Part shown: one piece after another, positions 1-17,154 of the stretch
Layout: each line of letters starts with the position of its first letter
How positions within the stretch are numbered: position 1 is the first letter of the stretch
From: Aromatoleum toluolicum
Lineage (GTDB): Bacteria > Pseudomonadota > Gammaproteobacteria > Burkholderiales > Rhodocyclaceae
Direction of reading: 5' to 3'
DNA: 35,946 nucleotides
Assembly (NCBI RefSeq): GCF_012911005.2
Contig: NZ_WTVS01000056.1
Location: 1-35,946, forward strand
Program-made: the position numbers and the translations under genes
The notes under the pieces: generated by a model
What the model saw: only the letters and a program-made list of their open reading frames with translations
What the model was told of the DNA's origin: nothing
Databases searched by the model: none

Positions 1-95
1 GGCTTGCCCTTGGCGTCCTGGGCAATGGCAGGCGCCGAGCCGAGCAGGGCGGCGGCGAACACGGTCAGGAGAAGGGTTGGAATACGGCGGGTCAT
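1..95 (-). CDS. Secreted protein of unknown function, 5' end only (truncated by window edge)
   Basis: Only about the first 31 codons are visible. The peptide begins MTRRIPTLLLTVFAAALLG and continues to an APAIAQ-type cleavage site, which is a clear Sec signal peptide, so the product is exported. Its ATG overlaps the TGA of the upstream triheme cytochrome gene as ATGA, so the two are translationally coupled and the protein probably works with that cytochrome. In the paralogous arrangement near 6791-7194 the gene after a triheme cytochrome encodes a beta-propeller protein. By analogy this could be the same, but nothing of the mature domain is visible. Confidence 0.75.
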   Translation of the reverse strand, partial: MTRRIPTLLLTVFAAALLGSAPAIAQDAKGK

Positions 96-523
96 TTCTT
101 GCTACCTCCTTGCCCGACGGGAACTGCCAGTTTCTGGATGGTGCTTTCGTGCACTTGCGTGGGGGTATTGGGTTTGCCGGAATGGCACAGGTCGCAGTTC
201 TCGACCGACCAGGCGACTTCGCCGTTGTGGCATGCGCCACAGAACTGGCCGTCAATGATCTTCAGCATCGTGATCTCGTTGCCGCCCGCCTTGAACTGGA
301 AGCCGAGGTCCGCGTGGCAGACCTTGCAGCGGAAACGGATCCGGTGGAACCAGTGCGGGAAGATCGCCGGGCGCATGCCGGCCGCGTCGGCATAGTTGTT
401 GATGACGATGTCGCCGTACTCGGCGCGGCTGTCGGACGGGGTCCAGAGCGTGATGGCCACTACGGCAAACAGCAGCGCAGTGAGCCCACGACGGACTCTT
501 GCTACCCACGGGACCTGCTTCAT
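92..523 (-). CDS. Periplasmic triheme c7-type cytochrome
   Basis: The 143-residue product has a signal peptide (cleavage after about residue 34, SRA|EYG) and three CXXCH heme motifs: CKVCH, CGACH and CDLCH. A segment before the first heme, FPHWFHRIRFRCKVCH, carries two histidines likely to act as distal heme ligands. This is the pattern of short c7/c3-like triheme cytochromes that carry electrons in the periplasm. A closely similar paralog lies at 6799-7194; most of the heme region is identical. The gene follows a 453-base gap holding a possible sigma-54 promoter and starts a new unit that continues with the gene at 95. Cytochrome identity is certain; its redox partners are inferred from the neighbourhood. 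Confidence 0.93.
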   Translation of the reverse strand: MKQVPWVARVRRGLTALLFAVVAITLWTPSDSRAEYGDIVINNYADAAGMRPAIFPHWFHRIRFRCKVCHADLGFQFKAGGNEITMLKIIDGQFCGACHNGEVAWSVENCDLCHSGKPNTPTQVHESTIQKLAVPVGQGGSKK

Positions 524-554
524 AGTTCAACCCTCTTGAAAACGTAAACCGTTT

Positions 555-592
555 TTGCCAGCCAAAGTGCCCGAGATTCCGCCGGCTGGCAA
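555..592 (-). promoter_or_regulatory. Inverted repeat in predicted leader of triheme cytochrome gene
   Basis: TTGCCAGCC (555-563) and GGCTGGCAA (584-592) are perfect 9-bp complements separated by 20 bases, 32 bases ahead of the ATG at 523. On the transcribed strand the stem is followed by AAAACGG, not a T run, so it is not an intrinsic terminator. It could be a leader hairpin or a dyad operator; function is unknown. Confidence 0.35.
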
Positions 593-733
593 CCAAACGA
601 ATGTAATCGTCCCCTTGGCCGCGCCAGACGAATCCGACATGGTGTTGGAGGTTCTTACTGTCGCACCGAGCTCGCCCGTCTTTTGAGTCACCCCTCCCGA
701 CCGGGCCACGCTGCGCGTCGGACTGGTGCAATT

Positions 734-749
734 AGCAAGAATTGCGCCC
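734..749 (-). promoter_or_regulatory. Possible sigma-54 (-24/-12) promoter of triheme cytochrome gene
   Basis: On the minus strand the sequence reads GGGCGCAATTCTTGCT. Compared with the sigma-54 consensus TGGCACG-N4-TTGCW it keeps the invariant GG and GC at the correct 10-base spacing and a full TTGCT -12 element. The inferred transcript would begin near 723, giving a leader of about 200 bases before the ATG at 523. The long leader lowers confidence; the upstream dyad at 843-858 raises it. Confidence 0.4.
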
Positions 750-842
750 GACGACTATTACGATCGACGTAACCCATGGCCGCCGCTTGACAGGCTCTGG
801 CTGCCGGTGAATGTAACTGATTGTATTGTGCGTGAGAATGGT

Positions 843-858
843 TTCCCGAAAGCGGGAA
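843..858. promoter_or_regulatory. Dyad TTCCCG-N4-CGGGAA, possible activator site
   Basis: A perfect 6-bp inverted repeat with a 4-base centre, about 94 bases upstream of the possible sigma-54 promoter at 734-749. That is a usual distance for an enhancer-binding protein site. A near-identical dyad occurs at 12771-12786 upstream of another sigma-54-like promoter, which argues against chance. Confidence 0.4.
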
Positions 859-976
859 TCGCCTGCGTGACGCTACGCCGGCCGGCCTTAGCCTACCGGG
901 CGCGCCTTCCGATGACAATCCATTACTTGCCTGTACAAAGGCTGCGCAAGGCTCCGTTCATCCGAGGCAGGGCGCG

Positions 977-1618
977 TCAATGGCCAGGAGCGGCGGATGC
1001 GGGGCGCTCTTCTGCGATTGTTGAATCGCGGGCGTCGGAACGCCATTCCCAGATCGCCGCTTCGGCTCGCGCGCGGAATGGGTCATCTGCCGGGGCACGA
1101 TGCAGATAGGTCTGCATCGCGCCCATGGCTCCGGGGCGGTTGCCCAGCGCGTCAAGCGTCAAGGCGAGCCCGAAGTAGGCATTGATCTGGTCACGTCGCA
1201 GCTCGATGGCCGACTCGAAGAAGTCGCGTGCGTGCTTCCATTGCTCGAGTCCGATCAGTGCGAATCCCATGTTGACGTGCGCTTCGGGAATCTCGGGCGC
1301 GAGCGCCAGGACTTGGTGGAAGGCCGTCAGGGCGTATTCGTACTGGTGCATGCGGAGCATCGCCACGCCCTGTTCGAATCGTGTCTGAACCTCTTTCAGC
1401 GTTGCAGCGTCGGCCGTCGCATTGCGCGGCTCGAGGGGCAAAATGTTGGCAAAGGCAAGGCGCTTCGGGGGGGGCAGGTCGCCACGCGGTGGGTCCAGGG
1501 CCAGCACGCCGCCGAGCGCCAGCGTGGCGAGCACTGTGATGACTAGCGCGCGGCGGCGAACGTCGCGGCGGGCTGGCTGGGGTTGTGTGGGGGCATCGTG
1601 GCCGTGCGTGATCTGCAT
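977..1618 (-). CDS. Membrane-anchored TPR protein
   Basis: The 213-residue product has a basic N-terminus, one hydrophobic segment (about residues 24-42, ALVITVLATLALGG) and then tetratricopeptide repeats over about residues 75-180, e.g. around AHVNMGFALIGLEQW and NAYFGLALTLDALG. It is therefore probably anchored in the inner membrane with the TPRs in the periplasm. It is the last gene of the ResB-CcsA-oxidase-like run, and TPR proteins of the CcmH/NrfG kind hold apocytochromes during heme attachment, so a cytochrome-assembly scaffold is a reasonable inference. The ATG chosen overlaps the preceding gene by 76 bases, unusually long. A GTG inside the hydrophobic segment is the only later candidate and would spoil the anchor. 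Confidence 0.8.
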   Translation of the reverse strand: MQITHGHDAPTQPQPARRDVRRRALVITVLATLALGGVLALDPPRGDLPPPKRLAFANILPLEPRNATADAATLKEVQTRFEQGVAMLRMHQYEYALTAFHQVLALAPEIPEAHVNMGFALIGLEQWKHARDFFESAIELRRDQINAYFGLALTLDALGNRPGAMGAMQTYLHRAPADDPFRARAEAAIWEWRSDARDSTIAEERPASAAPGH

Positions 1619-2859
1619 AGTCTGACAATCCGGGGTACGACGATGATTGCGAAGTAGGCGACGCCGACGATCGTGATGGTGCCGCCCACGCCGGTGAGTG
1701 TTGCGGCGATGATCGTTCCGGGCTCCGCGTCTGCGGGGCTGAATCCGGTCTTGCGCGGTGCACCCAGCGCACCGCTCCAGGCAAGACCGCAGATCAGCGT
1801 CGTTATTCCGAAGGCGTAGATCGAGAGCGGCCTCCGCGTCGGAGTGGCCTGTTCGCGAATATTGTGCGTCGGCGACAGGCGTGCGATCACCGCAGCCATC
1901 TGTGCGAGCGTAAAGGCGCCGATTGTACCGTGATAATGGGCCGGAATCAGCGTCGTCTGGCTATCGATGGCAGTGCCGGCGAAAATGCCAAGGCAATATA
2001 AGCCGAGTGATGCAACAAATCCGTCGGCTCGCCGGGCGCCTGGCTGGAATGCAAGGAGCAGGCCGAATATCAGCGGCGCCGGCCAGTTCGACAAGCGCAT
2101 GATCTGAGTGTGAAGTCCGTGCAGGGTGCCGTGATCGACCCCTCCGAGGAGCAGTGCGGGGGCGAGGACTCCGGGCAGGGATGCCGCGGCGAACAAGGCG
2201 AGCGTGACCCGCGAGGGGGGCGCGGTGACGCCGGCATTCTGTGTCAGCCGCAACCATATCGCCATCATCAGCGTCACGAATCCGAACTGAAGGATGTGTC
2301 CGGCGCCCCACAGAGCGTCGATCAGCCCCATCCCTTGTCGCCATGCGAGCAGCAGGTAGAGCGCCCCCATAAAGAAGGGCAGGCGGGCGATGACGAAGCC
2401 GCATTCGGCGGCATCACGGGGGCGGGACAGGGAGATGCTTGCGGTGAAGAGCGTTGCGAGCGCAAACAGCGCCAGCGATCCGAGAAACAAAGGGTGGTCG
2501 AGATAGGGAACGTAATTGGCGAGGGTCGGTGTGCCGGGAGCAAGAAGGCCCGTCGCAATCACGCCGAACGCCCCGGCGGCACCGCAAAGGTTCAGTATCC
2601 CGGCGAGCTTTTGGCGGCGCGCGTCCAGGCGTTCGGTCCATAAAGCGCTCGCCATCGAGAAGTACCATAGCAGCGTGGCCAGGTTTACATGCACCACGAG
2701 GGCGCGCGGAAAGCTGTCCGAGGCGATGAACGAGGTGAGGCCCGGGGTGCGCGCGAGCACGAGCAGAGCGGCCGCCACCGCGGACAGTCCCAGTGATATT
2801 GCCGCCGCAAGGAGCCATCGCTGAGAAACCACCGTGGGTTGCGCGCGCGTCTGCGGCAT
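1543..2859 (-). CDS. Heme-copper oxidase subunit I-like polytopic membrane protein
   Basis: The 438-residue protein has about twelve hydrophobic segments. Histidine-bearing motifs sit where subunit I of heme-copper oxidases has heme and copper ligands: HVNLATLLWYF (His57), WGAGHILQFGF, a helix with HGTLHGLHTQIMRL, and PAHYHGTIGAF near residue 315. The resemblance to NorB/cbb3-like subunit I is partial and no subunit II or III gene is adjacent, so it may be a quinol- or heme-interacting relative rather than a working oxidase. The open frame extends upstream to 3510 but that part is an out-of-frame reading of ccsA. The start at 2859 is preceded by CAGGGAG and its A is shared with the TGA of the full-length ccsA frame (TGATG), so the two are coupled. 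Confidence 0.8.
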   Translation of the reverse strand: MPQTRAQPTVVSQRWLLAAAISLGLSAVAAALLVLARTPGLTSFIASDSFPRALVVHVNLATLLWYFSMASALWTERLDARRQKLAGILNLCGAAGAFGVIATGLLAPGTPTLANYVPYLDHPLFLGSLALFALATLFTASISLSRPRDAAECGFVIARLPFFMGALYLLLAWRQGMGLIDALWGAGHILQFGFVTLMMAIWLRLTQNAGVTAPPSRVTLALFAAASLPGVLAPALLLGGVDHGTLHGLHTQIMRLSNWPAPLIFGLLLAFQPGARRADGFVASLGLYCLGIFAGTAIDSQTTLIPAHYHGTIGAFTLAQMAAVIARLSPTHNIREQATPTRRPLSIYAFGITTLICGLAWSGALGAPRKTGFSPADAEPGTIIAATLTGVGGTITIVGVAYFAIIVVPRIVRLCRSRTATMPPHNPSQPAATFAAAR

Positions 2860-3680
2860 CACACGGCTCCCTGGTGCGGGACAGCGGAGATGAACGGTAC
2901 GCCGAAGAATGTCAGGAAAGCGGTGATGAACACCGCGAGTACCAGTCCGGCGTGTGCCGGCGGCGAGAGGCGATAGGCAAGCCGGGCGTGAATGGTGAAT
3001 GCGACCGTGAGCTAGGTTATGAACGCCCATGTTTCCAGCGGATCCCAGGCCCAATAGCGGCCCCAGGCATCCTGGGCCCAGATGGCGCCGGCTATGAGCA
3101 TCAGGGTGTGGAAGATCAGCCCGATCGCCATGCAGCGGAAGGCGAGTTCGTCGAGTTGAGGGCTGGCCGGGAGGTGGGCCAGACGTTGCCGTCCGATTCC
3201 GGCATGGCGCATGAGAATTACGCACGACAGACCGACGGCGACCAGCACTGCGCCGAGGAAGACCTTGCCGAGTCCGATATGGATGTACAGCCAGGGCGTG
3301 TTGTAGGTAGGCGGGTAATGCCCTTCGCCGGGGTGGGCGACCATCAGCCAGCCCAGCATGACGAACATCAGCGGCATGACGATCGCGGCAGTTGCACGAA
3401 TCCGCGCGATGCGCCAGTAGGCCAGGGAATAGGCGGCCATCAGACTCCACACATTCGAGCACAGGATCTCGAACATCGTGATGAAGGGGCCGTGTCCGAG
3501 GCGATCCCAACGCAGCCCGATCGACAGGGTCTGTAGCGCAAGTCCGGCAAGCATGAGCGCGAGTACCGAGCGTTCGGGTCGTTTACCCAGCACGACGCCA
3601 ACGACGGCAACGACACCCGCGAGTACGTAGGCCGTCACTGCGGCCCAAAGGATCTGCAGTTCTTGTTCCATTTCAAGCAT
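2859..3680 (-). pseudogene. ccsA: CcsA/ResC-type cytochrome c assembly protein interrupted by in-frame TAG
   Basis: The frame encodes a system II cytochrome c synthase subunit that carries heme across the membrane. It has several membrane helices and the tryptophan-rich WWD motif (WGRYWAWDPLETWAFIT), with histidines in YIHIGLGKVFLG and IFHTLMLIAG. After 222 residues a TAG stands at 3014-3012, where family members read Trp (WAxIxW). The same frame then continues for 50 more codons with a family-like C-terminus (TAFLTFFGVPF) to a TGA at 2861-2859 that overlaps the next start. A TGG to TAG change explains everything. It may be a real inactivation, a suppressed amber, or a base-call error. Without readthrough the protein loses its last membrane helices. 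Confidence 0.85.
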
Positions 3681-4731
3681 CCCACGGCTTGGCCGTGAAT
3701 TTTCTCCAAAAGTGCGCAGCCAGACTCACGACCGCTAGCGCACAAGCAGCAAGCAGCCAAGGCAGGGTCCAATCGTAGAACACGCGGTAGCCCATCCAGC
3801 TGCGCAGCCCCTCGAATTCGAGGGTGCCTTCTGCGGTCTGCAGCGATTCTCCCGGGCGCATTTCATGGCGGTCGCGGCCGATCCGCACAACTAGCCGGTA
3901 TCGTTCCGGCAGCCGGAATGTCGTGTGTTCGGCGGGGTCAAGGAGAATCTCGTCGATGTCCAGCATTACCCAAATCGACAGCGCGCTGCCCGGAGGGGTC
4001 CATTCCGCCGCCTGGCTGTATTCCTTCAGAGGGTAGGGCGGAAGCTGCACGGACCCTCGCAGATCGGCCCCGTGAGCGTTGCGCCACCGGAATGTCGGCG
4101 CGAATCCCTTGTTGAACGTCGTGTAGAAGCGATATCCGGACAGCACAAGGGGAGTCTGGTCGCCGATCAGTTCCTCGTGCCAGCGCCCGTCCGGGCCGGC
4201 CCACGCCACCTCGTTACGGGTGGCGCCACGCTGGAGTCCGGGCGCGTAATCGATCCGAAAGCCCTTGTTCACGAAATGCACGCGCGCAAGGTCGCCTGCA
4301 TGCAGAGGCCCTTGGTCGGAGTCGGAAAGAGTGCCGTCGAAGGGCACGCCTTCGGTGACGCCGACATAGCCGTTCAGGTAGGTCAATCGTCCTGCAGCGA
4401 CGAGCAGCAGCAGGACGATCAGGGCAAGGTGGAAGACGAGCAATTCCGTCTGGCGGCGGAACACGCCATTGGTCAGCACCGCAGCCAGCAGGTTGAGCGC
4501 CAGCAGGACAAGCGGGACGACCAGTGGCCAGGTGCGGGCCCCTTCCCGCAGATAGGCAAACGCGACCCCGCATCCGAGGAGGGCGATCAGCGCCAGGGTC
4601 AGCCGTAGCGACGCGAGGAGGCGCAATATCCCTGCACTCGCCGGGCGTCGTTCCGGTGCGATCGTGAGAACTGCCCAAGCCCGGTCGACGCTGCCCTCCG
4701 TTGCCTTGCCCTCCTTAACAGCACGAACCAT
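3673..4731 (-). CDS. resB: ResB/Ccs1-family cytochrome c assembly protein
   Basis: The 352-residue product has three hydrophobic segments near the N-terminus (roughly residues 36-60, 68-90 and 97-116), a soluble periplasmic domain of about 200 residues, and a last membrane segment (about 323-345, PWLLAACALAVVSLAAHF). This is the ResB layout in short form. ResB partners CcsA in system II, keeping apocytochrome and heme in position for thioether formation. Its TGA lies 8 bases inside the ccsA start, so the two are co-translated. The gene follows the beta-propeller lipoprotein gene by 18 bases. Its place inside a cytochrome operon suggests assembly genes dedicated to these cytochromes, in addition to whatever system the rest of the genome has. 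Confidence 0.88.
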   Translation of the reverse strand: MVRAVKEGKATEGSVDRAWAVLTIAPERRPASAGILRLLASLRLTLALIALLGCGVAFAYLREGARTWPLVVPLVLLALNLLAAVLTNGVFRRQTELLVFHLALIVLLLLVAAGRLTYLNGYVGVTEGVPFDGTLSDSDQGPLHAGDLARVHFVNKGFRIDYAPGLQRGATRNEVAWAGPDGRWHEELIGDQTPLVLSGYRFYTTFNKGFAPTFRWRNAHGADLRGSVQLPPYPLKEYSQAAEWTPPGSALSIWVMLDIDEILLDPAEHTTFRLPERYRLVVRIGRDRHEMRPGESLQTAEGTLEFEGLRSWMGYRVFYDWTLPWLLAACALAVVSLAAHFWRKFTAKPWDA

Positions 4732-4749
4732 CTTGCCGCCCGGTCCTCG

Positions 4750-5850
4750 TCATTCCGCGTCGGCCTTCGCTCCGCCAAGGTACTGGAAGATCGTTACTCG
4801 CCCATTGAACGTATCTGCGACGAATACCCGATTGAAGGAGTCGACCCACACCCCGGAAGGGAGATAGAAATTGCCGGTTCCCTGGCCGACGCCGCCGATC
4901 GGCATCAGAAACTCCCCGGCTTCGTTGAAGATCAGCAAATTGTCGTAATAAGACTCGACGACGTAAATATTGTTCTCGCTATCGACGCCGACGCCTTTCG
5001 GTCGAACGAGATTGCCGTAGTAAAGACCGCGTTTGCCGATGACCTGCGGTTTTCCGTCGCCCTCGAGCGGGATCACCTGCACGCGGCTGTTCATCGTGTC
5101 CGTCACATAAAGCTTGCCTTGCCCGAGTGCGATGTGTGTCGGGAAATTGAATTCACCTGGAGCCTCGCCGCGTTCGCCGATGATCCGCTCCAGTCGTCCA
5201 TCGGCGCCGAAGACCTTGATGTCGTGTGCGTAGGTGTCAGCGACGTAGAGGAGGCCGGTGACCGCGTCGCGTGCGATTCCTGTGGGGCGCTGCAACACGC
5301 CAGCGCCGATGGGAGGCTGCGGGTTTCCCTGCGTGTCCAGGTGTGCGACGAGTTGCAGTTCCGCATCGGCTACCCAGATTCCGCCACCTTTGGCGAGTGC
5401 GACGCCAATGGGGGCGACGAAACGACGCAAGCCGACAGCGTATTCCCAGATCTTGAGCTCACCGGCCGGTTTGTCGAAGACGAAAACGGCGGCACGGCTG
5501 ACGTCGGTGACGAAGATCCTTTCGTGTTCATCCGCAATCACGGCTTGCGGCCGCTGCAGCACGTTCGGTTTTTCCTCGTCGAACAGACCGACTACCCAGG
5601 CGAGAAAGCGCACGATACCCTTCGAATCGTCCTCGCGGACAAAATTCTCCTCGCCGGTGAGTTGGCCGGCGAACTGATAGCGGGGGACTTCCGGTTCGCC
5701 CGGCCACATGAGTCGCTTGCCTTCCGGCGCTTCGAGCAGGCCGTAATGGAGGCGCGCCGGCGTGGCCTGGGTCGCGCACCCTGCCAGCGTAACGGCGAGC
5801 GCAAGTGTCAGCCACGAGAGGACGGACGACGCGGGATTTTTCAAACTCAT
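4750..5850 (-). CDS. NHL-repeat beta-propeller lipoprotein
   Basis: The 366-residue product begins with a lipoprotein signal peptide ending in LAGC (Cys at about residue 24), so it is membrane-anchored on the extracytoplasmic side. From about residue 95 to the end it has repeated NHL-type blades: a PxGV/PTGI-like turn, then a hydrophobic strand with LYVADT, LYVTDT or IYVVES, then a V-x-V/I-F strand. These make a six-bladed propeller. Such proteins accompany multiheme-cytochrome conduits in metal-reducing bacteria and may be assembly or docking factors; the exact role is not established. The start overlaps the preceding gene as ATGA. A similar lipoprotein lies at 12795-13907. Confidence 0.88.
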   Translation of the reverse strand: MSLKNPASSVLSWLTLALAVTLAGCATQATPARLHYGLLEAPEGKRLMWPGEPEVPRYQFAGQLTGEENFVREDDSKGIVRFLAWVVGLFDEEKPNVLQRPQAVIADEHERIFVTDVSRAAVFVFDKPAGELKIWEYAVGLRRFVAPIGVALAKGGGIWVADAELQLVAHLDTQGNPQPPIGAGVLQRPTGIARDAVTGLLYVADTYAHDIKVFGADGRLERIIGERGEAPGEFNFPTHIALGQGKLYVTDTMNSRVQVIPLEGDGKPQVIGKRGLYYGNLVRPKGVGVDSENNIYVVESYYDNLLIFNEAGEFLMPIGGVGQGTGNFYLPSGVWVDSFNRVFVADTFNGRVTIFQYLGGAKADAE

Positions 5851-6791
5851 CTCCGTGAGGGCGGGGTGACGCCGAATACTCCGATCCGGCCGGAAGGGGC
5901 GTCGGCGATGTATGCGTGATATACGTCGATCGAGATTGCGGTAAGGTCCACGAGCCCGAGCTGTGCGGGTTTCAGGGTGGCGACCAACTCGCCATGATCG
6001 AAGATCTTGAGACTTCGATCGCCCCGGTCAATCACCCATGTGCGGTCATGCGCGTCGAGCGCAATATCCGACGGGTTGAGCAGTTTGCCTTCCCCATACT
6101 TGCCGATAACGTACCCGTCGCGATCGAAGTCGACTATGCAGCGGCAACGCGGATCGATTCCGGCGACATGCACACGATTGGCAGCGAGAAGCGTCGCCCC
6201 GGCGAGCTCATCCGGAAAACCGTCACCACGCCCAACGAGGGGCTCGCTTTTTCGCCCGGATGGGTGAAAGGCGAATACGCCGCCTGCTGCATCGGATATC
6301 CACGGCCTGTTGAGGGTGGGTTCGATCACAATGTCAGCCGGTTGGAGGACCTCATACTTTGCGCTGAAGGTGACTATCGGGCGACCATCCCTTGTAAGGC
6401 GGGTGACCTCGCCACGATCAGGGCGGAGAACGTAGACGCTGCCGTCGATGCCGGCCTTGATGCGAACCCCTGGCAAAGGCGATATCTCGCGCAGCGGCGT
6501 GATCGACTGGCTAACGGTATCGATGCGCAGCAGCAAGCGCTGGCCGCTATCGACAACGTAGAGGTCGGGGCCGTTTGCGGTCAGAGCGGACGGATGAAAC
6601 AGCTTGAGATAAGCCCCGCTCGGAGGCTGTCCGGGGACCGGTGACGCTGGAGCCGAAAAGCCGCCGACAATCATCCTGTAGGGCGACAGGAAAGCAGAGG
6701 CGTGTTCGAAGGCCGCCGCCTCGGAACCCATGTCGGCGCCGGCTATCTGGGTCAACGCGAGGAACATGCTGCCGGCTAGGATGCGCAACAT
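5847..6791 (-). CDS. Secreted divergent NHL/beta-propeller protein
   Basis: The 314-residue product has a short signal peptide (MLRILAGSMFLALTQIAGA) without a lipobox, so it is probably soluble in the periplasm or exported. Propeller-like repeats run through most of the protein, with strands such as DLYVVDSGQRLLLRID, SVYVLRPDRG and AYIADAPSGRIGVF, but they are more diverged than in its two lipoprotein neighbours. A frame open further upstream overlaps the cytochrome gene. The ATG at 6791 is chosen because it is preceded by GGTGA at a good distance and lies 7 bases after the upstream stop. Function beyond a protein- or cytochrome-binding propeller cannot be stated. Confidence 0.82.
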   Translation of the reverse strand: MLRILAGSMFLALTQIAGADMGSEAAAFEHASAFLSPYRMIVGGFSAPASPVPGQPPSGAYLKLFHPSALTANGPDLYVVDSGQRLLLRIDTVSQSITPLREISPLPGVRIKAGIDGSVYVLRPDRGEVTRLTRDGRPIVTFSAKYEVLQPADIVIEPTLNRPWISDAAGGVFAFHPSGRKSEPLVGRGDGFPDELAGATLLAANRVHVAGIDPRCRCIVDFDRDGYVIGKYGEGKLLNPSDIALDAHDRTWVIDRGDRSLKIFDHGELVATLKPAQLGLVDLTAISIDVYHAYIADAPSGRIGVFGVTPPSRR

Positions 6792-10434: not shown

Positions 10435-10446
10435 TCTTGGCGCGGA

Positions 10447-11505
10447 TTACTTGCCCGTAACCAACCCCTTTTTGGCGAGTGCCGGATAGCGTGCCGTGTT
10501 CAGCTCGATTTTCGCCTTCTTGCGCAGTTGCTCCTTCAGGCTTTGCCATGCTTCGTCGCTGAGATCGCGTTTGAGCAAATCACTTGCGCGGGACTTCACG
10601 GTCTCGAAATCATGATGTTTGGGAGGCTGCAGGGCTTCATAGCGGAACAGGGCAATGCCCTGCAGGACTCGCGTCGGAGGTGAGAGGTCGCCCGGTTTCA
10701 TGCCGTCGATCTTTTCCTGGATGCCCTCCGGCAGCATGCCGCGATGCATGTAGCCAAGGTCGCCCCCGTTTTCGGCCGATTCATGGCGCGAGCGCTCTTT
10801 TGCCAGTTGTGCGAAATCGGCGCCGCCCTCGGTGAGTTTAAGCCGCAGGGCGCCGGCATCGGTTTCTGCCGCCTCCCACGCCGAGGTAGGGGCCGACGGG
10901 TCAACCGACAGCAGGAGCAGCGAAATCCGCATCTTCTCGGGTTCGGTAAACTTCTCGGGATGCTTCTTGTAGTAGCCAAGCACCTTGTCTTGAGTCGGCT
11001 GCGGGACATTCCGCGTCTTGGCCTCGAGCGTGGCCAGCATGTCGTCTTCTTCGAGGCGCTCTCGCAGTGCCGGCAGAATCTGCTCCCGCTCCTGTTGCCA
11101 GCGTGCGCTCGATGCGTAGCGCTTTTCGTAAGCGGCAATCTTCTCATCGATCGCTTTTGCATTCGGCTTCAGGTCGCGACGTTTAATTTCTTCGACGAGC
11201 AGTCGACGGTCGATCATGTCGTTGGCGACATCGCGGACAAGTTGTTCGACTTCGCCTTCGGGCGGTGTGCCGTGATAGAACTTCTGGCGGATTGCTTCCC
11301 GGGTCGCTGCATCGAATTCGGAGGAACTGATCACCTTGCCATTGACGACCGCCAGGTATGGGGGCGAGGCGTGGGGGTCGGCGGGCCTCTGTGCCGTAGC
11401 GGCCGCCTTGGCGGGGTCGGGCTTGGGCGCGTCGGCCGCGTGGGTGCCGAAGGCAATGAGCGTTGCGGCGATAGTGCCGGAAACTGCGCGAGCGATCATT
11501 TTCAT
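10447..11505 (-). CDS. Parvulin-type (PpiC) periplasmic peptidyl-prolyl isomerase
   Basis: The 352-residue product has a signal peptide (to about residue 24), a SurA-like helical region (about 50-185) and a parvulin rotamase domain (about 190-295) with MRISLLLLSV, ADFAQLAKERS and GGDLGYMHRGMLPE typical of PpiC domains. It would assist folding of the barrel or of the proline-containing cytochromes in the periplasm. Its stop lies 12 bases ahead of the barrel gene. The start at 11505 is chosen over an upstream one because it begins the signal peptide and follows a GAGAA-like site. The strong terminator at 11588-11620 separates it from the cytochrome gene, so its transcription probably comes from readthrough or a promoter I cannot place. 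Confidence 0.9.
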   Translation of the reverse strand: MKMIARAVSGTIAATLIAFGTHAADAPKPDPAKAAATAQRPADPHASPPYLAVVNGKVISSSEFDAATREAIRQKFYHGTPPEGEVEQLVRDVANDMIDRRLLVEEIKRRDLKPNAKAIDEKIAAYEKRYASSARWQQEREQILPALRERLEEDDMLATLEAKTRNVPQPTQDKVLGYYKKHPEKFTEPEKMRISLLLLSVDPSAPTSAWEAAETDAGALRLKLTEGGADFAQLAKERSRHESAENGGDLGYMHRGMLPEGIQEKIDGMKPGDLSPPTRVLQGIALFRYEALQPPKHHDFETVKSRASDLLKRDLSDEAWQSLKEQLRKKAKIELNTARYPALAKKGLVTGK

Positions 11506-11689: not shown

Positions 11690-12502
11690 TTACTTGGTGT
11701 GGCAGGCCAGGCAGATCTTGCTGCCGGACGTCGTGACGCGCATGAAGTTCACGTCGGAGTTCGTGCCAGCCTTGTCGGTATGCGGATCGTGGCAGGACGC
11801 GCACTCGACCGACGGGCCCGTTGCATTGCCCGTGAAGGTGCGGGTGTAGAGGATGATGTCGTTCTTCGAGCGGGTGCCAGCGCCGGTGGTGTCAACCCAG
11901 AAGACCTGCGAACCATTGATCGACTTCGTCGTTACGGCGTTGAAGTCCGAATCGGCACACGTACCGCTCACAGTGGCGCCCGAGCCGGTCAGGCCGCCGC
12001 CGCAGTACTGGATGCCGATCGGGTGGTCGTTGGTCAGATCCTTGGTGAGGTTGGCAACGCCGGTGACCTTGTTGGTGCCCGTGGTCCAGTTGTAGTTGCG
12101 GTCCGAGCCGGCGGCGTTCAGGCCGCCCGAGCCCGGCGCGTTGACCAGGTTGTCCATCGCCTGGGTGCCGTCGTGGCAGGACAGACAGGCTGCGGAGACC
12201 GAACCGACCGCCAGCACGTTACCGTCGATCGTCGACGAATTCGCCGTCGAGTAGGTCGTGTAACCGGTGCTCGCGGGAATAGCCTTGTTCCACAGGGGGG
12301 CAGTGGCGCTCGTGTTCGCCGCGTGCGGGGTGTGGCAGAAGACGCAGATCTGTTCGGTAGTGCTCTGCTTGTTCGGGCCAGGGCCAGGATTCGCGCCCCC
12401 AGCGGTCAGGTTATGCGGCGTGCTCACAATGCCCGCCGACGCGCCGCCGGCAATCAGCGCGAGCGACGCGGCTGCGAGCGACAGTTTGAAGATTTTTTTC
12501 AT
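11690..12502 (-). CDS. Tetraheme cytochrome resembling OmcE-type nanowire subunit
   Basis: The 270-residue product has a signal peptide (to about Ala23) and four heme motifs, at Cys53-His57, 106-110, 234-238 and 264-268. The mature chain has exactly four other histidines (30, 60, 160, 241), one for each heme, so all four hemes can be bis-histidine ligated. The order HNL...CVFCHTPH...CLSCHD...DHP...CASCHDPH...CLACH matches, as I recall it, the OmcE-type cytochromes that polymerise into extracellular filaments. Cys167/Cys182 could form a disulfide. The segment around 64-101 and later loops are rich in Ser, Thr and Asn. The ATG follows GGGGG; a longer frame upstream is non-coding. A strong terminator follows. 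Filament formation is inferred. Confidence 0.88.
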   Translation of the reverse strand: MKKIFKLSLAAASLALIAGGASAGIVSTPHNLTAGGANPGPGPNKQSTTEQICVFCHTPHAANTSATAPLWNKAIPASTGYTTYSTANSSTIDGNVLAVGSVSAACLSCHDGTQAMDNLVNAPGSGGLNAAGSDRNYNWTTGTNKVTGVANLTKDLTNDHPIGIQYCGGGLTGSGATVSGTCADSDFNAVTTKSINGSQVFWVDTTGAGTRSKNDIILYTRTFTGNATGPSVECASCHDPHTDKAGTNSDVNFMRVTTSGSKICLACHTK

Positions 12503-12770: not shown

Positions 12771-12786
12771 TTCCTGAACTCGGGAA
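12771..12786. promoter_or_regulatory. Dyad TTCCTG-N4-CGGGAA, possible activator site
   Basis: This near-perfect inverted repeat matches the one at 843-858 (both TTCCYG-N4-CRGGAA on one strand or the other). It stands about 138 bases upstream of the possible sigma-54 promoter of the OmcE-like gene. A 10-bp palindrome GGAATATTCC (12765-12774) overlaps it. Location and repetition suggest binding by a shared activator. Confidence 0.4.
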
Positions 12787-12794
12787 GGTGATTA

Positions 12795-13907
12795 TCAGCG
12801 TTTGGAACCGCTTGATCGATTTACGAGGAAGCCTTGGTCCGCTGGCAGGTTGTATGGTCTGAAGACGTCGATCTTGGAGAACCACTGGTCGACGAAAAAG
12901 ATCCGGCCGTCCTCGTCGATGGCGATGCCCGAGGGCAGAATGTACTGGGCCGGGCCGCCCTGCTCTGAGCGGTTGCCGATGTACATCAGCAGTTCGCCTT
13001 CCGGGTCGAAGATCTGAAAATTGCCGAATGCCGCATCGGCGACATAGACGTTGCCGTCGTTGTCGGTCGCGATCTCCTTGGGCCGGGCAAAGTTGCCGAG
13101 CTGGCGACCGACAGCGCCGAAGCTGCTGTGGTGGCTGCCGTCGGCGTTGAAGATCTGGACCCTGAAGTTGCCGCCATCGACGACATACAGTCGCCCGTCC
13201 TTGCCGATGGCCATGTCTCGTGGCAGATTGAATTCTCCCGGCCCCGTGCCGCGCTTGCCGATGTCCATGACGTGCCGGCCTGTTGCGGTCTCGAACACCC
13301 GGACACGATGGTTCTCCGATTTGACGCCACCGATGTCTACGACGTAGATCCGTTGTCCCGAGGGGTCGACGGTGACGCTGGAGATGCGGTCGAAGAGGTC
13401 CTTGCCCCCAATCTTGCGCAGGAATTTGCCGTCGCGGCTGTAGATGAAGACCATCTTCTGCGTGGCGTCGGCAACATAGAGTCGTCCGGAGCGATCGACG
13501 TCGAGTCCGAGCGGCTTGACGAGTTGGCCGGGCTCTTCGTCGCCGATCGTAAAATACTTCGCGGTGGCGACGTCGAAGACCTTCACCGAGCGTTCGGCAG
13601 TGTCCGACACGAAGATGCGGCCGCGGTGAGCGGCGACCGCATAGGGTTTCGTGAGAAAGTGGCCGCTGCGCTGCGCGCCGGTCACCATGCGCCGGAACGC
13701 ATCATCGCTCGTGTCGGTCTCGACGTCGGCCGAACTCGTGATCGTGCGTTCGTACACGAAGCGCGGCTCGTCCGGTGGGCCGGGGAATACCAATGGGCCG
13801 GTGGCGCGCGTTACCGGGGCTTCGCCGCCGATTTCCGCACATCCCGCGATCAGGGTGATGCTGGCGGCGAGGGTGAGGGCGAGAAGGCGCGAGCTTGTGC
13901 GAGGCAT
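12795..13907 (-). CDS. NHL-repeat beta-propeller lipoprotein
   Basis: The 370-residue product has a lipoprotein signal peptide ending in LIAGC (Cys at about residue 23). From about residue 85 to 350 it carries about six NHL blades, with repeated motifs such as RIFVSDTAERSVKVFD, RLYVADATQ, RLYVVDGGNFRVQIF and NVYVADAAFGNFQIF. It resembles the lipoprotein at 4750-5850 in layout and in the PGPPDEPRFVYE segment after the anchor. It sits between two tetraheme cytochrome genes and probably contacts them at the membrane. The open frame extends far upstream over the neighbouring cytochrome in another frame; an ATG at 13952 is an alternative start but would place 15 polar residues before the signal peptide. 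Confidence 0.88.
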   Translation of the reverse strand: MPRTSSRLLALTLAASITLIAGCAEIGGEAPVTRATGPLVFPGPPDEPRFVYERTITSSADVETDTSDDAFRRMVTGAQRSGHFLTKPYAVAAHRGRIFVSDTAERSVKVFDVATAKYFTIGDEEPGQLVKPLGLDVDRSGRLYVADATQKMVFIYSRDGKFLRKIGGKDLFDRISSVTVDPSGQRIYVVDIGGVKSENHRVRVFETATGRHVMDIGKRGTGPGEFNLPRDMAIGKDGRLYVVDGGNFRVQIFNADGSHHSSFGAVGRQLGNFARPKEIATDNDGNVYVADAAFGNFQIFDPEGELLMYIGNRSEQGGPAQYILPSGIAIDEDGRIFFVDQWFSKIDVFRPYNLPADQGFLVNRSSGSKR

Positions 13908-14019
13908 GGGTCGCGTCTTCGTGGAAGTTCGGCGGTCAGTGAGCAGTTTCATCGGCGTGTTGGGCAGGAATGGTCTGAGATGGAAATGGGGTATGCAGGT
14001 GGGGGCGTGCGCGCTTCGC

Positions 14020-14775
14020 TCACTTGACGTGGCAGGTGAGGCACAGTTCGCTGGGGTTGCTTTCGGTGCGGAGGAATAACGGGCGCACGGTGTGTGGGTC
14101 GTGGCAGCTGGCGCATTCCACGAATGGAATTTCCGTTTGGTCTTCCTGATCAAGGCGTACGTAGAGGGGTACATCGAGACGGCCGCGCTGAGCGGATGAC
14201 GTGTCCTTCGAGACCCACCAGACCGGGCGATCGTCGACAATCCCGCGCCTGGCTTGGCGAAACCCGTCATCGAACTTGATCTGCTTTGCTGTGTTGATGA
14301 GTTTGCCGGCGCGTTGCAGCTCTTCGCGGATCTGTTTGCGTTGTTCGGGGGTGAGTGCCCCTCTATAGGGGACCGCGTAGGGGTGGTCGAGGCTTCCGCC
14401 CGAGACCCCGAAAGCCTGGGACGAATCGTGGCACGAGAGGCAGGCAATCGACTGCGAGCCAACGGCTTCGCTGCCTTCCTTTCCCAGTCGGCCGATGTCG
14501 TCGAACATCAGGAAGACACCGTCTTTCGGCACCGAGCTCTGCCACTTCGGCTGGGCCGCATCGTCCGCGTTCGTGTCGGTCGGCGTGTGGCAAAAGACGC
14601 AGATCTGGCGCGGGTCAGCGCCTCCGTTGCCATTGATCTGGACGAGATTGTGCTTGCTGTTGCGCATGTCTATCCGCTGTGCCTGTGCCGGCAAGCTGCC
14701 GAGCGAGGTCAAGGCGAGAAGTGCGATCAGTGTCGTGATGAGCCGGAGCGGAGTCGAGAGGCGCGCGATTAGCAA
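14020..14775 (-). CDS. Tetraheme cytochrome, paralog of the OmcE-like protein lacking one distal histidine
   Basis: The 251-residue product has a signal peptide (to about Ala32) and four heme motifs (CVFCH, CLSCH, CASCH, CLTCH). Order and surroundings are the same as in the OmcE-like protein (SKHNL, DHP, CASCHDPH). The histidine that follows the first heme there (CVFCHTPH) is Thr66 here (CVFCHTPT), so there are four proximal but only three other histidines. The Ser/Thr-rich region is replaced by a charged, helical stretch around residues 130-160. It may cap a filament or link it to the barrel and periplasmic cytochromes. The start is a TTG; no ATG precedes the signal peptide in frame. Confidence 0.87.
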   Translation of the reverse strand: MLIARLSTPLRLITTLIALLALTSLGSLPAQAQRIDMRNSKHNLVQINGNGGADPRQICVFCHTPTDTNADDAAQPKWQSSVPKDGVFLMFDDIGRLGKEGSEAVGSQSIACLSCHDSSQAFGVSGGSLDHPYAVPYRGALTPEQRKQIREELQRAGKLINTAKQIKFDDGFRQARRGIVDDRPVWWVSKDTSSAQRGRLDVPLYVRLDQEDQTEIPFVECASCHDPHTVRPLFLRTESNPSELCLTCHVK

Positions 14776-14848
14776 TTGTCGCTCGTATGGTTGCGGGGTT
14801 TTCCAAACCGTGGAAGCCTGTTCTCAAGTTCGGGACCGGGTGCTGTTC

Positions 14849-15152
14849 CTACCGGGACTGTGACACCATATATTCCACCGCAGCTCGTACCTGGCTGTCG
14901 GCAAGTCCCGGGTTGCCCCCCCTTGGGCGGCATTCCGCCCTTGCCCCGGAGTGCCGATTGCTGCAACGCTTCAAGTCCTGCCGGCAGGCGTGGCGCCCAC
15001 GCGCTCTTGTCGCCAAGAATCGGGGCTCCGGCGACCCCGGTTGCATGACAGGCACGACAAATTTGAGTATAAACCGCCTTGCCGTCGGCAGCTGAAAGAT
15101 TGGTTGTCACGACGAGGAGTGCCAGGCCGGCAGGTGCAAGGAAGTGCTTCAT
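14849..15152 (-). pseudogene. Monoheme c5-type cytochrome with frameshift in a G7 run
   Basis: A signal peptide (to about Ala21) is followed by a class I cytochrome fold with CRACH at residue 32 and a methionine ligand in GKGGMPPKGG. At the run of seven G (14916-14922, C on the plus strand) the frame leaves the family pattern and reads on to 14769. With one G fewer the frame gives NPGLADSQVRAAVEYMVSQ, the normal last helix of c5-type cytochromes, and stops at 14849, for a protein of 100 residues. It would be a small periplasmic electron carrier. It is the first gene after the strongest sigma-54-like promoter. The extra G may be a sequence error or a true mutation. Confidence 0.82.
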
Positions 15153-15217
15153 TCTGGTCCCGTCGATTAATCGTAGCGCTGGTCGGAGGCGTAACGTATG
15201 GTTGGATCGGTTAGGCA

Positions 15218-15233
15218 AGCAATGCACATGCCA
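15218..15233 (-). promoter_or_regulatory. Sigma-54 promoter driving the leftward cytochrome operon
   Basis: The minus strand reads TGGCATGTGCATTGCT, which differs from TGGCACG-N4-TTGCW at one position only. The start would be near 15206, about 55 bases before the c5 gene ATG at 15152. This is the best match to the sigma-54 consensus that I found in the window. Confidence 0.7.
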
Positions 15234-15248
15234 AAGATGGAAACTGGC

Positions 15249-15264
15249 CGGTTCGGTTCTTGCA
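15249..15264 (+). promoter_or_regulatory. Sigma-54 promoter driving the rightward cytochrome pair
   Basis: The plus strand reads CGGTTCGGTTCTTGCA: GG and GC are 10 bases apart, CG and a perfect TTGCA -12 element are present. Transcription would start near 15275, 24 bases ahead of the GTG at 15299. An ATG at 15260 lies inside this element and so is unlikely to be the gene start. Confidence 0.55.
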
Positions 15265-15298
15265 TCTAGGCTGCAGTTTTTCGACCCAGAGGTATCTT

Positions 15299-16153
15299 GT
15301 GAATCAGAAGAAGCAATTCACGCAGGTCCTGCGCTCATGCGCGCTTGGTGTTGGCGTGGCGCTGAGTTACGGCGCGAGCGGCAGCACAATCAAGGCCGAC
15401 GTGCTTTACCATGAGTACTGTTCGGTGTGCCACGGCGACCGGGGTGACGGAAACTCCCGGGCGATGAAGAGCCTGAACCCCCCTCCCCGGGATCTGACCA
15501 CGGCGGGCGCGACACTTCCGCGCGACTATATTCTTCACGTTATTACGCACGGCAAGCCGAACACGGCGATGGTCGGTTACAAGTCCCGCCTGAATGCGGA
15601 GCAGCTGGCGGCGCTGGCGGACTACGTGCACACGGACATCGTGAACCGCGGAGCGGCAATTTCGGCGGGCATGATCAAGGGGATTTCCGGAACGTCCGGT
15701 ACGACCGGCGGGACCGGTGCCGCGAGTTCGGCGCCCGGTGCTGCGGGAGCTGCCCCGGTGCCGCCGATTGCCGCGCCTGTGCCGCCGGTGAAGCCGGTGG
15801 CGCCCGATGAGCGTGCCGACATGAGCGCACCGTTTCCGTCCGGATTGAAAGGTGATGCCGCCAAAGGCCAGGCGTTCTACGAGAAGAATTGCGCCGAATG
15901 CCATGGTGTGAAGGGGGACGGTCAGGGGCCGCGTGCCTACTTCATTCGTCCGGTGCCGCGCGACTTCCTGCACGAGCGTTCCCGTCTGACCCTGAATCGC
16001 CCGGCCATCTATGCAGCCGTATTTTTCGGGCGTAACGGGACTGAAATGCCGGCATGGAGCAAGGTGCTGACCGAGCAGGAGATCGCCAACGTCTCGGAAT
16101 ATGTGTTCCAGACCTTCATCCGCTCGGGTGAGAAGGCTGCCAAGGCGAAATGA
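15299..16153 (+). CDS. Secreted diheme class I cytochrome c
   Basis: The 284-residue product has an N-terminal hydrophobic export signal and two cytochrome c domains. The first has CSVCH with a likely Met ligand in GKPNTAMVGY, the second CAECH with Met in GRNGTEMPAW. About 55 residues rich in Ala, Pro, Gly and Thr (about 118-172) link them. Both hemes are thus of the His/Met type and of higher potential than the bis-His hemes nearby. The GTG start is chosen because AGAGG stands 8 bases before it, while the ATG 39 bases upstream falls in the promoter. The stop overlaps the next gene as ATGA. Confidence 0.9.
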   Translation: MNQKKQFTQVLRSCALGVGVALSYGASGSTIKADVLYHEYCSVCHGDRGDGNSRAMKSLNPPPRDLTTAGATLPRDYILHVITHGKPNTAMVGYKSRLNAEQLAALADYVHTDIVNRGAAISAGMIKGISGTSGTTGGTGAASSAPGAAGAAPVPPIAAPVPPVKPVAPDERADMSAPFPSGLKGDAAKGQAFYEKNCAECHGVKGDGQGPRAYFIRPVPRDFLHERSRLTLNRPAIYAAVFFGRNGTEMPAWSKVLTEQEIANVSEYVFQTFIRSGEKAAKAK

Positions 16154-17154
16154 TCGGACGTATCTGGTTGGGCGGGTTTGCCGCGGCACTTGTCGTGGCC
16201 CCGTTCACGGCACCGGCGTTTGCTGCCGACGCAGGCAAGGATGCCCGGCACGAGGCCGGGCGCAAGATCTACAATTTCCGCTGCTATTTTTGCCACGGCT
16301 ACTCCGGGGATGCGAAGACGCTCGCGGCGACGTATCTCGCTCCCAAGCCGCGAGACTTCACGAAGGACGATGAGAAGTCGCTCGGCCGTGAGCAGATGAT
16401 CGCCGCGGTGCGCGACGGCAAGTCGAGCACGGCGATGAAAGGCTTCAAGGGCATCATCCCGGAGCGCGACATCGAACTTGTGGTCGACTTCGTGCGTGCG
16501 GAATTCATTCTCGCCAAGGCGATGAATACGCGTTATCACACGCCGGAGAATGGTTGGCCCAACCATGAGCGGCACAAGGTGGCCTTTCCGTTCGCGACGG
16601 GCACGATTCCGCTCGACCGCCCGTGGGAACAGCTCAGCCCGACTGAGCAAAAGGGCAAGCGCCTGTTCCTGACGACGTGCATCTCATGTCATGACCACGC
16701 CCGCACCGAGGACCCGGGGCCGGTGTGGGGAGGGCGGCCGCTGTCGTACCCTCGCAACCATTTCGATCCGGGCGATTTCACTGCGCCGCCGCCAAGCAAG
16801 GCCGACGCCATTGCGAGCGCCAGTCCGTATGCCTTGCATGACGTGGTGCCGCAGGTGTCGGGCCTGGCGCCCAACGAGAAGCGCGGGGAGACGCTGTTTC
16901 AGGCGAACTGCGCCTTTTGCCACGGTGCGACCGGGACGGGGCGGAACTGGATCGGCAGCTTCATGGAGCCGCATCCGCGTGATCTGACCGATCCGAAATT
17001 CATGCAGAACATGACGCGCGGGCGCCTGTCGCACACCATCCGGGAAGGGTTGCCGAACACGTCGATGCCTGCGTGGAAATCCGTGCTGAAGGACGACGAA
17101 ATCGATGCGATCGTTTCCTACGTTTCGCGGGTGTTCCATCCCGTGAAGCCGTAG
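16150..17154 (+). CDS. Secreted triheme class I cytochrome c
   Basis: The 334-residue product has a signal peptide (to about Ala25, AFA|AD) and three cytochrome c domains with CYFCH (near residue 45), CISCH (near 178) and CAFCH (near 256). Met ligands are likely in SSTAMKGF for the first and LPNTSMPAW for the third; the middle domain is shorter and has no clear Met, with HDHARTEDPG after its heme. The first and third domains resemble those of the diheme protein just upstream, with which it overlaps by 4 bases. The pair probably delivers electrons to, or takes them from, the leftward-encoded conduit. Confidence 0.9.
   Translation: MIGRIWLGGFAAALVVAPFTAPAFAADAGKDARHEAGRKIYNFRCYFCHGYSGDAKTLAATYLAPKPRDFTKDDEKSLGREQMIAAVRDGKSSTAMKGFKGIIPERDIELVVDFVRAEFILAKAMNTRYHTPENGWPNHERHKVAFPFATGTIPLDRPWEQLSPTEQKGKRLFLTTCISCHDHARTEDPGPVWGGRPLSYPRNHFDPGDFTAPPPSKADAIASASPYALHDVVPQVSGLAPNEKRGETLFQANCAFCHGATGTGRNWIGSFMEPHPRDLTDPKFMQNMTRGRLSHTIREGLPNTSMPAWKSVLKDDEIDAIVSYVSRVFHPVKP

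What the first reader, a model, noticed from the sequence alone, without database searches (positions are those of the whole stretch)
1..17154. Complete-looking outer-membrane electron conduit and cytochrome filament locus in a betaproteobacterial setting
Seen: eight c-type cytochromes (23 CXXCH), three beta-propeller proteins, a parvulin isomerase, a large Phe-ended barrel, ResB, CcsA, an oxidase-I-like protein and a TPR protein, mostly in one direction with 4-base overlaps. Known: metal-reducing bacteria pair barrels with cytochromes, and OmcE forms filaments. Inferred: this set forms a conduit plus filament with its own cytochrome assembly genes. The combination with system II assembly genes and an oxidase-like protein in one run is not one I can match to a described system.
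Basis: partly seen in the sequence, partly recalled or inferred. Interest (0 to 1): 0.85.

Follow-up and report, generated by a model that had tools for sequence, protein, structure and literature searches.

The report
Rearranged Uet nanowire locus in Aromatoleum
A group of culturable, pollutant-degrading soil bacteria carries a rearranged version of a known but barely studied gene set (Uet) that is predicted to carry electrons across the outer membrane and out along a protein wire.

Summary
One flaw: CcsA has an in-frame TAG where 11 of 11 orthologues have TGG. The claim of novelty fails: gene content and order match the Uet (undecaheme electron transfer) locus of Tenderiales and Gallionella (PMC10734462 passages). 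The window set is not complete: UetE, UetF and the undecaheme UetJ are missing. The genus is Aromatoleum. The same 12 of 17 Aromatoleum genomes carry the oxidase-like gene and UetJ; the other 5 lack both. In relatives UetJ is the next recognised gene after the main propeller in 66 of 66 loci; in 8 of 8 Aromatoleum-type loci it is ResB, and uetJ lies about 16-39 kb beyond the cluster where both are on one contig. ResB plus CcsA occur in 49 of 56 other Uet loci, so that link is usual. New here: the split architecture; an OmcE paralogue lacking one histidine; and a whole OmcE-like module at the N-terminus of UetJ, suggesting how a cytochrome filament could be anchored. No structure could be predicted.

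The parts
92..523 (-). triheme c7 cytochrome, UetD-like by position (c7a)
   Evidence: 3 CXXCH; Cytochrome_C7 4.9e-15; TIGR04257 nanowire_3heme 8.2e-18; 82-100% identity in L020-L028
977..1618 (-). TPR protein with a hydrophobic N-terminal stretch
   Evidence: TPR_2 6.7e-13; a TPR gene follows ccsA or cox1L in relatives
1543..2859 (-). haem-copper-oxidase-subunit-I-like membrane protein (cox1L), function unknown
   Evidence: no Pfam match, no NCBIfam match; invariant H57, H188, H308, H310 (alignment, numbering); 12 hydrophobic segments; sub-threshold profile match to oxidases
3012..3680 (-). ccsA (System II haem delivery), interrupted by in-frame TAG; the frame of the orthologues goes on to about 2860
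   Evidence: Cytochrom_C_asm 4e-22; TAG vs TGG
3673..4731 (-). resB (System II), short form
   Evidence: ResB 4.4e-11
4750..5850 (-). NHL propeller lipoprotein, UetI-like by position (NHL1)
   Evidence: NHL 1.7e-26; lipobox LAGC read from sequence; 61-95% identity in A1
5847..6791 (-). second propeller, UetH-like by position (NHL2)
   Evidence: NHL 0.045 only; conserved at this position
6799..7194 (-). triheme c7 cytochrome (c7b)
   Evidence: 3 CXXCH; Cytochrome_C7 1.9e-15
7191..7847 (-). triheme c7 cytochrome, UetG-like by position (c7c)
   Evidence: 3 CXXCH; Cytochrome_C7 7.2e-10
7957..10434 (-). putative outer-membrane beta-barrel, UetC-like by position
   Evidence: C-terminal Phe read from sequence; orthologues in 12 of 61 genomes and by HMM in 61 of 80 loci; fold not tested
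10447..11505 (-). parvulin-type peptidyl-prolyl isomerase, UetB-like
   Evidence: Rotamase 1.6e-14
11690..12502 (-). tetraheme OmcE-like cytochrome, UetA-like
   Evidence: phmmer to OmcE 7tfs E=5.7e-28; 4 CXXCH plus 4 other His
12795..13961 (-). third NHL propeller lipoprotein (start approximate)
   Evidence: NHL 6.3e-27
14020..14775 (-). OmcE paralogue (OmcE2) lacking one non-CXXCH His
   Evidence: phmmer to 7tfs E=1.1e-12; CHTP[T/S] in 9 of 9 aligned sequences, window included, and in 11 of 11 rows from 9 other genomes
14769..15227 (-). monoheme class-I cytochrome (c1)
   Evidence: Cytochrome_CBB3 2.3e-12
15299..16153 (+). diheme class-I cytochrome (c2)
   Evidence: 2 CXXCH; Cytochrome_CBB3 1.3e-25
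16150..17154 (+). triheme class-I cytochrome (c3)
   Evidence: 3 CXXCH; Cytochrome_CBB3 5.1e-29
17210..22822 (-). three multi-pass membrane proteins with C-terminal TPRs (17210-19282, 19298-20974, 20987-22822), GT-C-like by my reading; link to the system uncertain
   Evidence: TPR families; close homologues of the third in 10 of 12 Uet-positive and 0 of 5 Uet-negative Aromatoleum genomes

Best explanation
The window holds most of a Uet-type (undecaheme electron transfer) locus of an Aromatoleum species. Shown: gene content, conserved order, and presence of the missing partner UetJ elsewhere in the same genome. Inferred mechanism: ResB/CcsA attach haem in the periplasm to the clustered cytochromes. 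Periplasmic class-I and triheme c7 cytochromes carry electrons between the inner membrane and the UetC barrel. A cytochrome, probably UetJ and/or trihemes, bridges the barrel. Outside, UetA polymerises as an OmcE-like wire with help from the parvulin UetB and the propeller lipoproteins. UetJ carries a whole OmcE-like module at its N-terminus and is proposed to be the socket joining wire to conduit. Direction of electron flow is not decided by sequence. The Aromatoleum arrangement looks derived: the D-E-F block lies behind the haem-attachment genes and uetJ lies about 16-39 kb beyond the cluster.
For: Uet components per PMC10734462 (passages) and the name uetABCDEFGHIJ per PMC12575090 (passage) correspond to the window genes. 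Homologous loci read omcE-PPI-barrel-c7a-c7-(300-aa protein)-c7c-(c7b)-NHL2-NHL1-undecaheme-resB-ccsA. The next recognised gene after NHL1 is the undecaheme in 66 of 66 non-Aromatoleum loci with at least 2.5 kb of flank, resB in 8 of 8 Aromatoleum-type loci (one search kept the best 80 of 198 loci). UetJ on own contigs C8 and C270. The same 12 of 17 genus genomes have cox1L and UetJ; the same 5 lack both. UetE-like and UetF-like genes sit left of c7a in G001. UetJ's N-terminus matches OmcE over residues 106-363, E=6e-26. ResB in 52 of 56 and ResB plus CcsA in 49 of 56 other loci.
Against: Tenderia Uet protein sequences were not compared and the original Uet paper is not held, so identity with Uet rests on gene content, haem counts and order. 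The barrel fold and filament formation are untested. No cytochrome in the window has more than 4 haems, so nothing in the window alone resembles an MtrA-type wire. The window's ccsA copy is interrupted. Three literature searches showed no expression or physiology data on this in Aromatoleum.
Confidence: 0.82

Rival explanations
1. The locus is a conduit that works without a filament: UetA and OmcE2 are monomeric terminal cytochromes on the cell surface.
For: OmcE-like fold does not prove polymerisation; a 2024 mBio title and abstract start report lack of physiological evidence for cytochrome filaments as conduits (PMC11077965, search listing).
Against: The window UetA keeps 4 CXXCH and 4 further His, as a bis-His tetraheme needs, and matches OmcE nearly full length.
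Confidence: 0.3
2. The locus works inward (uptake of electrons from Fe(II), minerals or a cathode) and feeds nitrate or oxygen respiration, rather than dumping electrons outward.
For: Uet was named in cathode-oxidising Tenderiales and occurs in iron-oxidising Gallionella (PMC10734462 passages; PMC12575090 passage). An oxidase-I-like gene is linked in 8 of 8 Aromatoleum-type and 10 of 56 other loci.
Against: An undecaheme cytochrome is also reported from a Mn-reducing Dechloromonas (PMC13264449 passage; source paper not held). Sequence cannot give direction.
Confidence: 0.45
3. In the window's own strain the system is decaying: the TAG in ccsA has inactivated the dedicated haem-delivery protein.
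For: TAG at a Trp position conserved in 11 of 11 orthologues.
Against: The other genes read here are open; a second, more distant ccsA on C270 has TGG there and reads on; the closest relative has System I genes nearby; a single-base assembly error is possible.
Confidence: 0.2
4. The oxidase-I-like protein is a working terminal oxidase or NO reductase of the pathway.
For: 12 hydrophobic segments; invariant His 57 in segment 3, His 188 in segment 7 and an HxH (308/310) after segment 10.
Against: Not found by PF00115 in its own genome at E<=0.001 although 5 other members were; the CuB HH pair is absent; hhalign E 0.065 (cbb3+NorB-like), 0.53 (cbb3 alone), 0.0012 over only 73 columns (CtaD, probability 19%).
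Confidence: 0.1

Closest known systems
Uet (undecaheme electron transfer) pathway, Tenderiales and Gallionella
   Same: tetraheme, parvulin, barrel, trihemes, two NHL proteins, undecaheme
   Different: uetJ about 16-39 kb beyond the cluster and in two copies in 8 of 12 genomes; D-E-F block moved; third propeller, OmcE2, c1-c3 and cox1L in addition (third propeller and cox1L also occur in part of the other loci)
Geobacter OmcE filament and its omcE neighbourhood
   Same: UetA homologous to OmcE; ResB/ResC pair GSU0613-0614 lies by locus tag near omcE GSU0618 (PMC2700814 passages)
   Different: barrel, undecaheme, NHL and parvulin set; whether these exist near omcE was not tested here
MtrCAB/MtoAB porin-cytochrome complexes
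   Same: barrel plus periplasmic cytochromes
   Different: no decaheme MtrA-type cytochrome in the window; UetJ scores only 36.6 bits against a 192.2 cut-off for the DmsE family
PCC3 / PCC4
   Same: porin plus multihemes in betaproteobacteria

Membership tests
Uet | extracellular tetraheme UetA | tested here: met
   4 CXXCH, OmcE-like; extracellular location not testable
Uet | peptidyl-prolyl isomerase UetB next to UetA and UetC | tested here: met
   Rotamase 1.6e-14, order
Uet | beta-barrel UetC | tested here: inconclusive
   conserved orthologue at the right place; no fold prediction possible
Uet | three trihemes UetD/E/G | tested here: met
   window has D-, G-like and one extra triheme; the E-like one is just outside, seen in G001 at L114:19398-20057
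Uet | UetF | tested here: inconclusive
   a conserved protein (317 aa in G001) lies between E and G in relatives and left of E in G001; what UetF is was not stated in the passages I read
Uet | NHL proteins UetH/I | tested here: met
   the H-like one is weak (0.045)
Uet | undecaheme UetJ in the genome | tested here: met
   own contigs C8 and C270
Uet | UetJ in the same cluster | tested here: not met
   0 of 8 Aromatoleum-type loci versus 66 of 66 others
Uet | direct sequence homology with Tenderia UetA-J | not tested
   no Tenderia sequence was fetched
OmcE filament cytochrome | sequence homology and enough His for four bis-His haems | tested here: met
   E=5.7e-28; 4+4 His
OmcE filament cytochrome | polymerises with a His from the next subunit | not testable with these tools
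   no structure obtained
MtrAB/PCC1 | decaheme MtrA-type cytochrome in the barrel | tested here: not met
   largest cytochrome in the window has 4 haems
PCC3 | very large multihemes (median 34/21) | tested here: not met
   definition
System II cytochrome c maturation | ResB and CcsA | tested here: met
   Pfam hits; CcsA copy has a stop
Haem-copper oxidase subunit I | PF00115 match and CuB His pair | tested here: not met

The most novel reading that the evidence does not exclude
UetJ is the anchoring socket of a cytochrome nanowire: its N-terminal OmcE-like module copies the filament subunit UetA and takes the first place of the wire, while its other seven haems connect to the barrel conduit. 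In Aromatoleum a second OmcE-like subunit, OmcE2, which has lost one of the four non-CXXCH histidines, acts as a cap or adaptor that stops or starts polymerisation. This would answer how OmcE-type wires are attached and ended.
Probability: 0.3. Interest if true: 0.8.

Novelty: new variant of a known kind. Interest (0 to 1): 0.5.

Why it matters
In the passages I saw, Uet is described from Tenderiales, including the not yet axenically cultured Tenderia, and from Gallionella genomes. One search finds the locus in named strains: Aromatoleum toluvorans, A. evansii, A. toluclasticum, A. tolulyticum, A. diolicum and Azoarcus sp. Aa7. I recall the genus as culturable aerobic/denitrifying degraders of aromatics. 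If the locus works, aromatic degradation could be tied to electrodes or minerals, and Uet could be dissected genetically. The OmcE module inside UetJ makes the attachment of cytochrome wires to the cell directly testable.

Tried and rejected
Considered and rejected: MtrCAB/MtoAB and PCC3/PCC4 (see membership test). A conserved in-frame stop (recoding) in ccsA was considered and rejected: 11 of 11 orthologues have TGG. The cox1L protein as a true oxidase was rejected as unproven: no PDB sequence match, not found by PF00115. Profile comparison gave E=0.065 to a mixed cbb3/NorB-like set, 0.53 to cbb3 alone, and 0.0012 over only 73 columns to CtaD (probability 19%), against 0.3, 0.61 and 0.62 for three unrelated control profiles.

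The idea that the membrane/TPR trio glycosylates the filament was tested and is only weakly supported. The query was the C-terminal 431 of 611 residues of the third protein (last membrane part plus TPRs), not its N-terminus. Close homologues are in 10 of 12 Uet-positive (not G002, G010, both with broken contigs) and 0 of 5 Uet-negative genus genomes. Of 35 distant Uet genomes, chosen from 72 non-Aromatoleum loci, one (L069/L130, an Ectothiorhodospiraceae MAG) has strong homologues, on the same contig near c2/c3. Four others (G436, G437, G440, G460) have weak partial hits to the membrane part; the other listed hits are mainly to the TPR part, and the list was cut.

Structure prediction of A2, A3 and A4 never started: the queue was full. 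Gene calling in G001 by longest ORF gave spurious genes and was replaced by codon scoring. In some searches several oxidase frames were misread; only correctly framed ones were used. Trees are FastTree, midpoint rooted. In one search OmcE2 falls on the tetraheme side, but a deep node there has support 0.381, so its exact origin is open. The clade of all 13 Aromatoleum UetJ copies has support 0.337. Rows dropped before the counts: 31 of 182 ORFs with 4 or more CXXCH; 29 are c7-type proteins of 4-6 haems beside the first triheme, one is an unrelated ORF (G012), one is the UetJ of L089 with CHIPH.
Full report
OBSERVATION. Family scans support the c7 and doubled-CXXCH cytochromes, ResB, CcsA, the parvulin and two of the three propellers; the third propeller is weak. 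The TPR protein is at 977-1618. The barrel and the oxidase-I-like protein have no family match. The CcsA frame is broken by a TAG at 3012-3014; the position is TGG in 11 of 11 orthologues, so it is private to this assembly (mutation or error).

WHERE IT IS. The window is the whole contig C241 of a 6.16 Mb assembly of 289 contigs. Close relatives of the locus carry names of Aromatoleum/Azoarcus strains. The barrel is found in 10 of 17 genus genomes including the window's own, and in 12 of 61 genomes searched in all. The oxidase-like gene is in 12 of 17. The two extra genomes, G002 and G013, have it at the same contig coordinates as L035 and L039, whose contigs break off just before the barrel.

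WHAT IT IS. A profile of the main propeller (NHL1) found 198 related places in the 84,980 species genomes, of which the best 80 were kept. Record titles place these in beta- and gammaproteobacteria or just Pseudomonadota, with one MAG titled Nitrospinota. HMMs made from the Aromatoleum genes show a standard locus: tetraheme - parvulin - barrel - triheme - c7 cytochrome (mostly 3-4 haems) - conserved protein of about 300 aa - triheme - (triheme) - propeller - propeller - 11-haem cytochrome - resB - ccsA - (cox1L) - TPR. Of 50 non-Aromatoleum loci with at least 8.8 kb on the left, 48 have the tetraheme, 47 the parvulin, 48 the barrel, 48 the first triheme, 48 the 300-aa protein, 46 NHL2, 27 c7b and 21 NHL3. 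Of 56 with at least 5.5 kb on the right, 56 have the 11-haem gene, 52 resB, 49 both resB and ccsA, and 10 cox1L. The four without resB are L058, L087, L088 and L100.

THE KNOWN NAME. [quoted passage not shown] six Gallionella have most of it, with barrel hits in four. PMC12575090 (passage) names the conserved cluster uetABCDEFGHIJ. PMC5371394 (passages) reports the Tenderia undecaheme Tel_16545, three trihemes Tel_16515, 16520 and 16530 among its most highly expressed genes, and a TPR gene Tel_16525 that appears co-transcribed with them. The original Uet paper (mSphere 2022) and the Dechloromonas Mn(III) paper are not held, and neither are the OmcE structure paper nor the 2023 survey of cytochrome wires. 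I therefore cannot say whether the OmcE-like module of UetJ or the ResB/CcsA link is already in print for Uet. That ResB/ResC pairs in Geobacter are predicted to be co-transcribed with multihemes and may be dedicated to them was written in 2009 (PMC2700814 passages).

THE ARRANGEMENT IN AROMATOLEUM. After the main propeller the next recognised gene is uetJ in 66 of 66 other loci, and resB in 8 of 8 Aromatoleum-type loci (seven Aromatoleum/Azoarcus, one from another genus of the family, G025 = L041). A profile of the seven C-terminal haems of UetJ nevertheless finds it in 12 of 17 genus genomes, exactly those with cox1L, and not in the other 5; 8 of the 12 have two strong matches. In 7 of the 12 (G001, G003, G005, G009, G012, G014, G016) uetJ and the cluster are on one contig; in the other 5 they are on different contigs. 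In G001 the order is: System I genes (CcmC, CcmE, CcmF-type and DsbE matched over cut-off) - second CcmC-like gene (below cut-off) - UetF-like - UetE-like - UetD-like - TPR - cox1L - ccsA - resB - NHL1 - NHL2 - c7b - c7c - barrel - parvulin - UetA-like - NHL3 - OmcE2 - c1 / c2 - c3 / membrane-TPR trio / glycan genes / BatD-like and following genes / ccsA2 - TPR - two FGE-sulfatase-like - resB2 - uetJ copy A - radical SAM - LuxE-like - uetJ copy B. Copies A and B begin 33 and 39 kb beyond c3; in G009 and G014 the copies lie 30-38 kb beyond it; in G003, G005 and G012 a single uetJ lies about 16-17 kb beyond it. What fills the gap was read only in the window and G001. In G025 two uetJ copies lie about 19 and 25 kb from c3, on that side. 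The window genome has uetJ on contigs C8 and C270, the latter with ccsA2 and resB2. A sample of the class gives UetJ-profile hits in 50 of 369 genomes, the window's own included and some of them short partial matches.

OMCE-LIKE PARTS. UetA matches OmcE (7tfs) at 5.7e-28 and another PDB multiheme (9yuq) at 3.8e-23. The own-genome UetJ matches 7tfs over residues 106-363, chain positions 6-230 of 232, at 6e-26. In a tree of 151 OmcE-like modules, 78 UetJ modules group apart from the tetrahemes (node support 0.901), together with two UetJ fragments cut by contig ends, one tetraheme (L054) and the pentaheme of C134. The His after CHTP is kept in all 79 UetJ modules seen (78 with CHTPH, one CHIPH) and in 62 of 62 other modules, but is Thr or Ser in 11 of 11 OmcE2 rows from 9 genomes (the window OmcE2 has Thr). 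By count of non-CXXCH His, the window UetA has 4 and OmcE2 has 3; of the 11 OmcE2 rows 9 have 3 and 2 have 4; of 60 UetA-type rows 59 have 4-7 and one has 3. So the lost position is the firm result, the total count less so. A review passage (PMC12954529) states that in OmcE an interfacial haem takes a His from the neighbouring subunit; which His that is was not available to me. The cap/socket reading is therefore an inference.

COX1L. Twelve hydrophobic segments and W-x-x-G-H and P-A-H-Y-H-G motifs invariant in 10 of 10 sequences. A weak colinear profile alignment to a cbb3/NorB-like set pairs these with the oxidase WWxGH and GHxHxG motifs, but E=0.065 is not significant and cbb3 alone gave 0.53. 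A link to the oxidase superfamily with loss of the CuB pair is plausible but unproven.

VERDICT. It is a rearranged member of the Uet kind in a genus for which three full-text searches showed no paper on extracellular electron transfer (0 papers with Aromatoleum + extracellular electron transfer + multiheme; 10 and 13 papers, titles and abstract starts only, none on it).

Noticed in passing
window 3012-3014: In-frame TAG at a conserved Trp of CcsA; TGG in 11 of 11 orthologues.
   Followed up: yes
window 17210-22822: Three consecutive multi-pass membrane proteins with C-terminal TPRs follow the cytochromes; a similar trio sits near c2/c3 in an Ectothiorhodospiraceae MAG (L130:8438-14890).
   Followed up: partly
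window 14769-15227; L028:11236-11406; L030:1812-2042: The monoheme c1 resembles a stretch just before the c7 part of the UetE-like gene in G010 and G047 (58% over 57 aa, 51% over 77 aa), where that gene has 4 CXXCH against 3 in Aromatoleum G001; c1 may be a split-off UetE domain.
   Followed up: no
L116:13114-16235: A B12-binding radical SAM protein and a LuxE-like acyl-protein synthetase stand between the two uetJ copies of G001.
   Followed up: no
L116:7626-9398: Two FGE-sulfatase-like proteins sit between ccsA2 and resB2 beside uetJ copy A.
   Followed up: no
L114:17219-18195: A second CcmC-like gene (154.5 bits, below its cut-off of 186) and a CcmD-like ORF (by eye) lie next to the Uet cluster in G001, apart from the main System I genes at L114:117-5872.
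   Followed up: partly
L033:8620-10835: Own contig C134 carries a further OmcE-like cytochrome with 5 CXXCH next to an NHL3-like propeller.
   Followed up: no
L089: A MAG titled Nitrospinota carries most of the standard Uet order, from the barrel to ccsA; transfer or mis-binning not tested.
   Followed up: no
window 34389-35759: BatD-like protein (DUF7939) at the contig end; in G001 it is followed by what I read as a Bat/MoxR-like gene run (named by eye).
   Followed up: no
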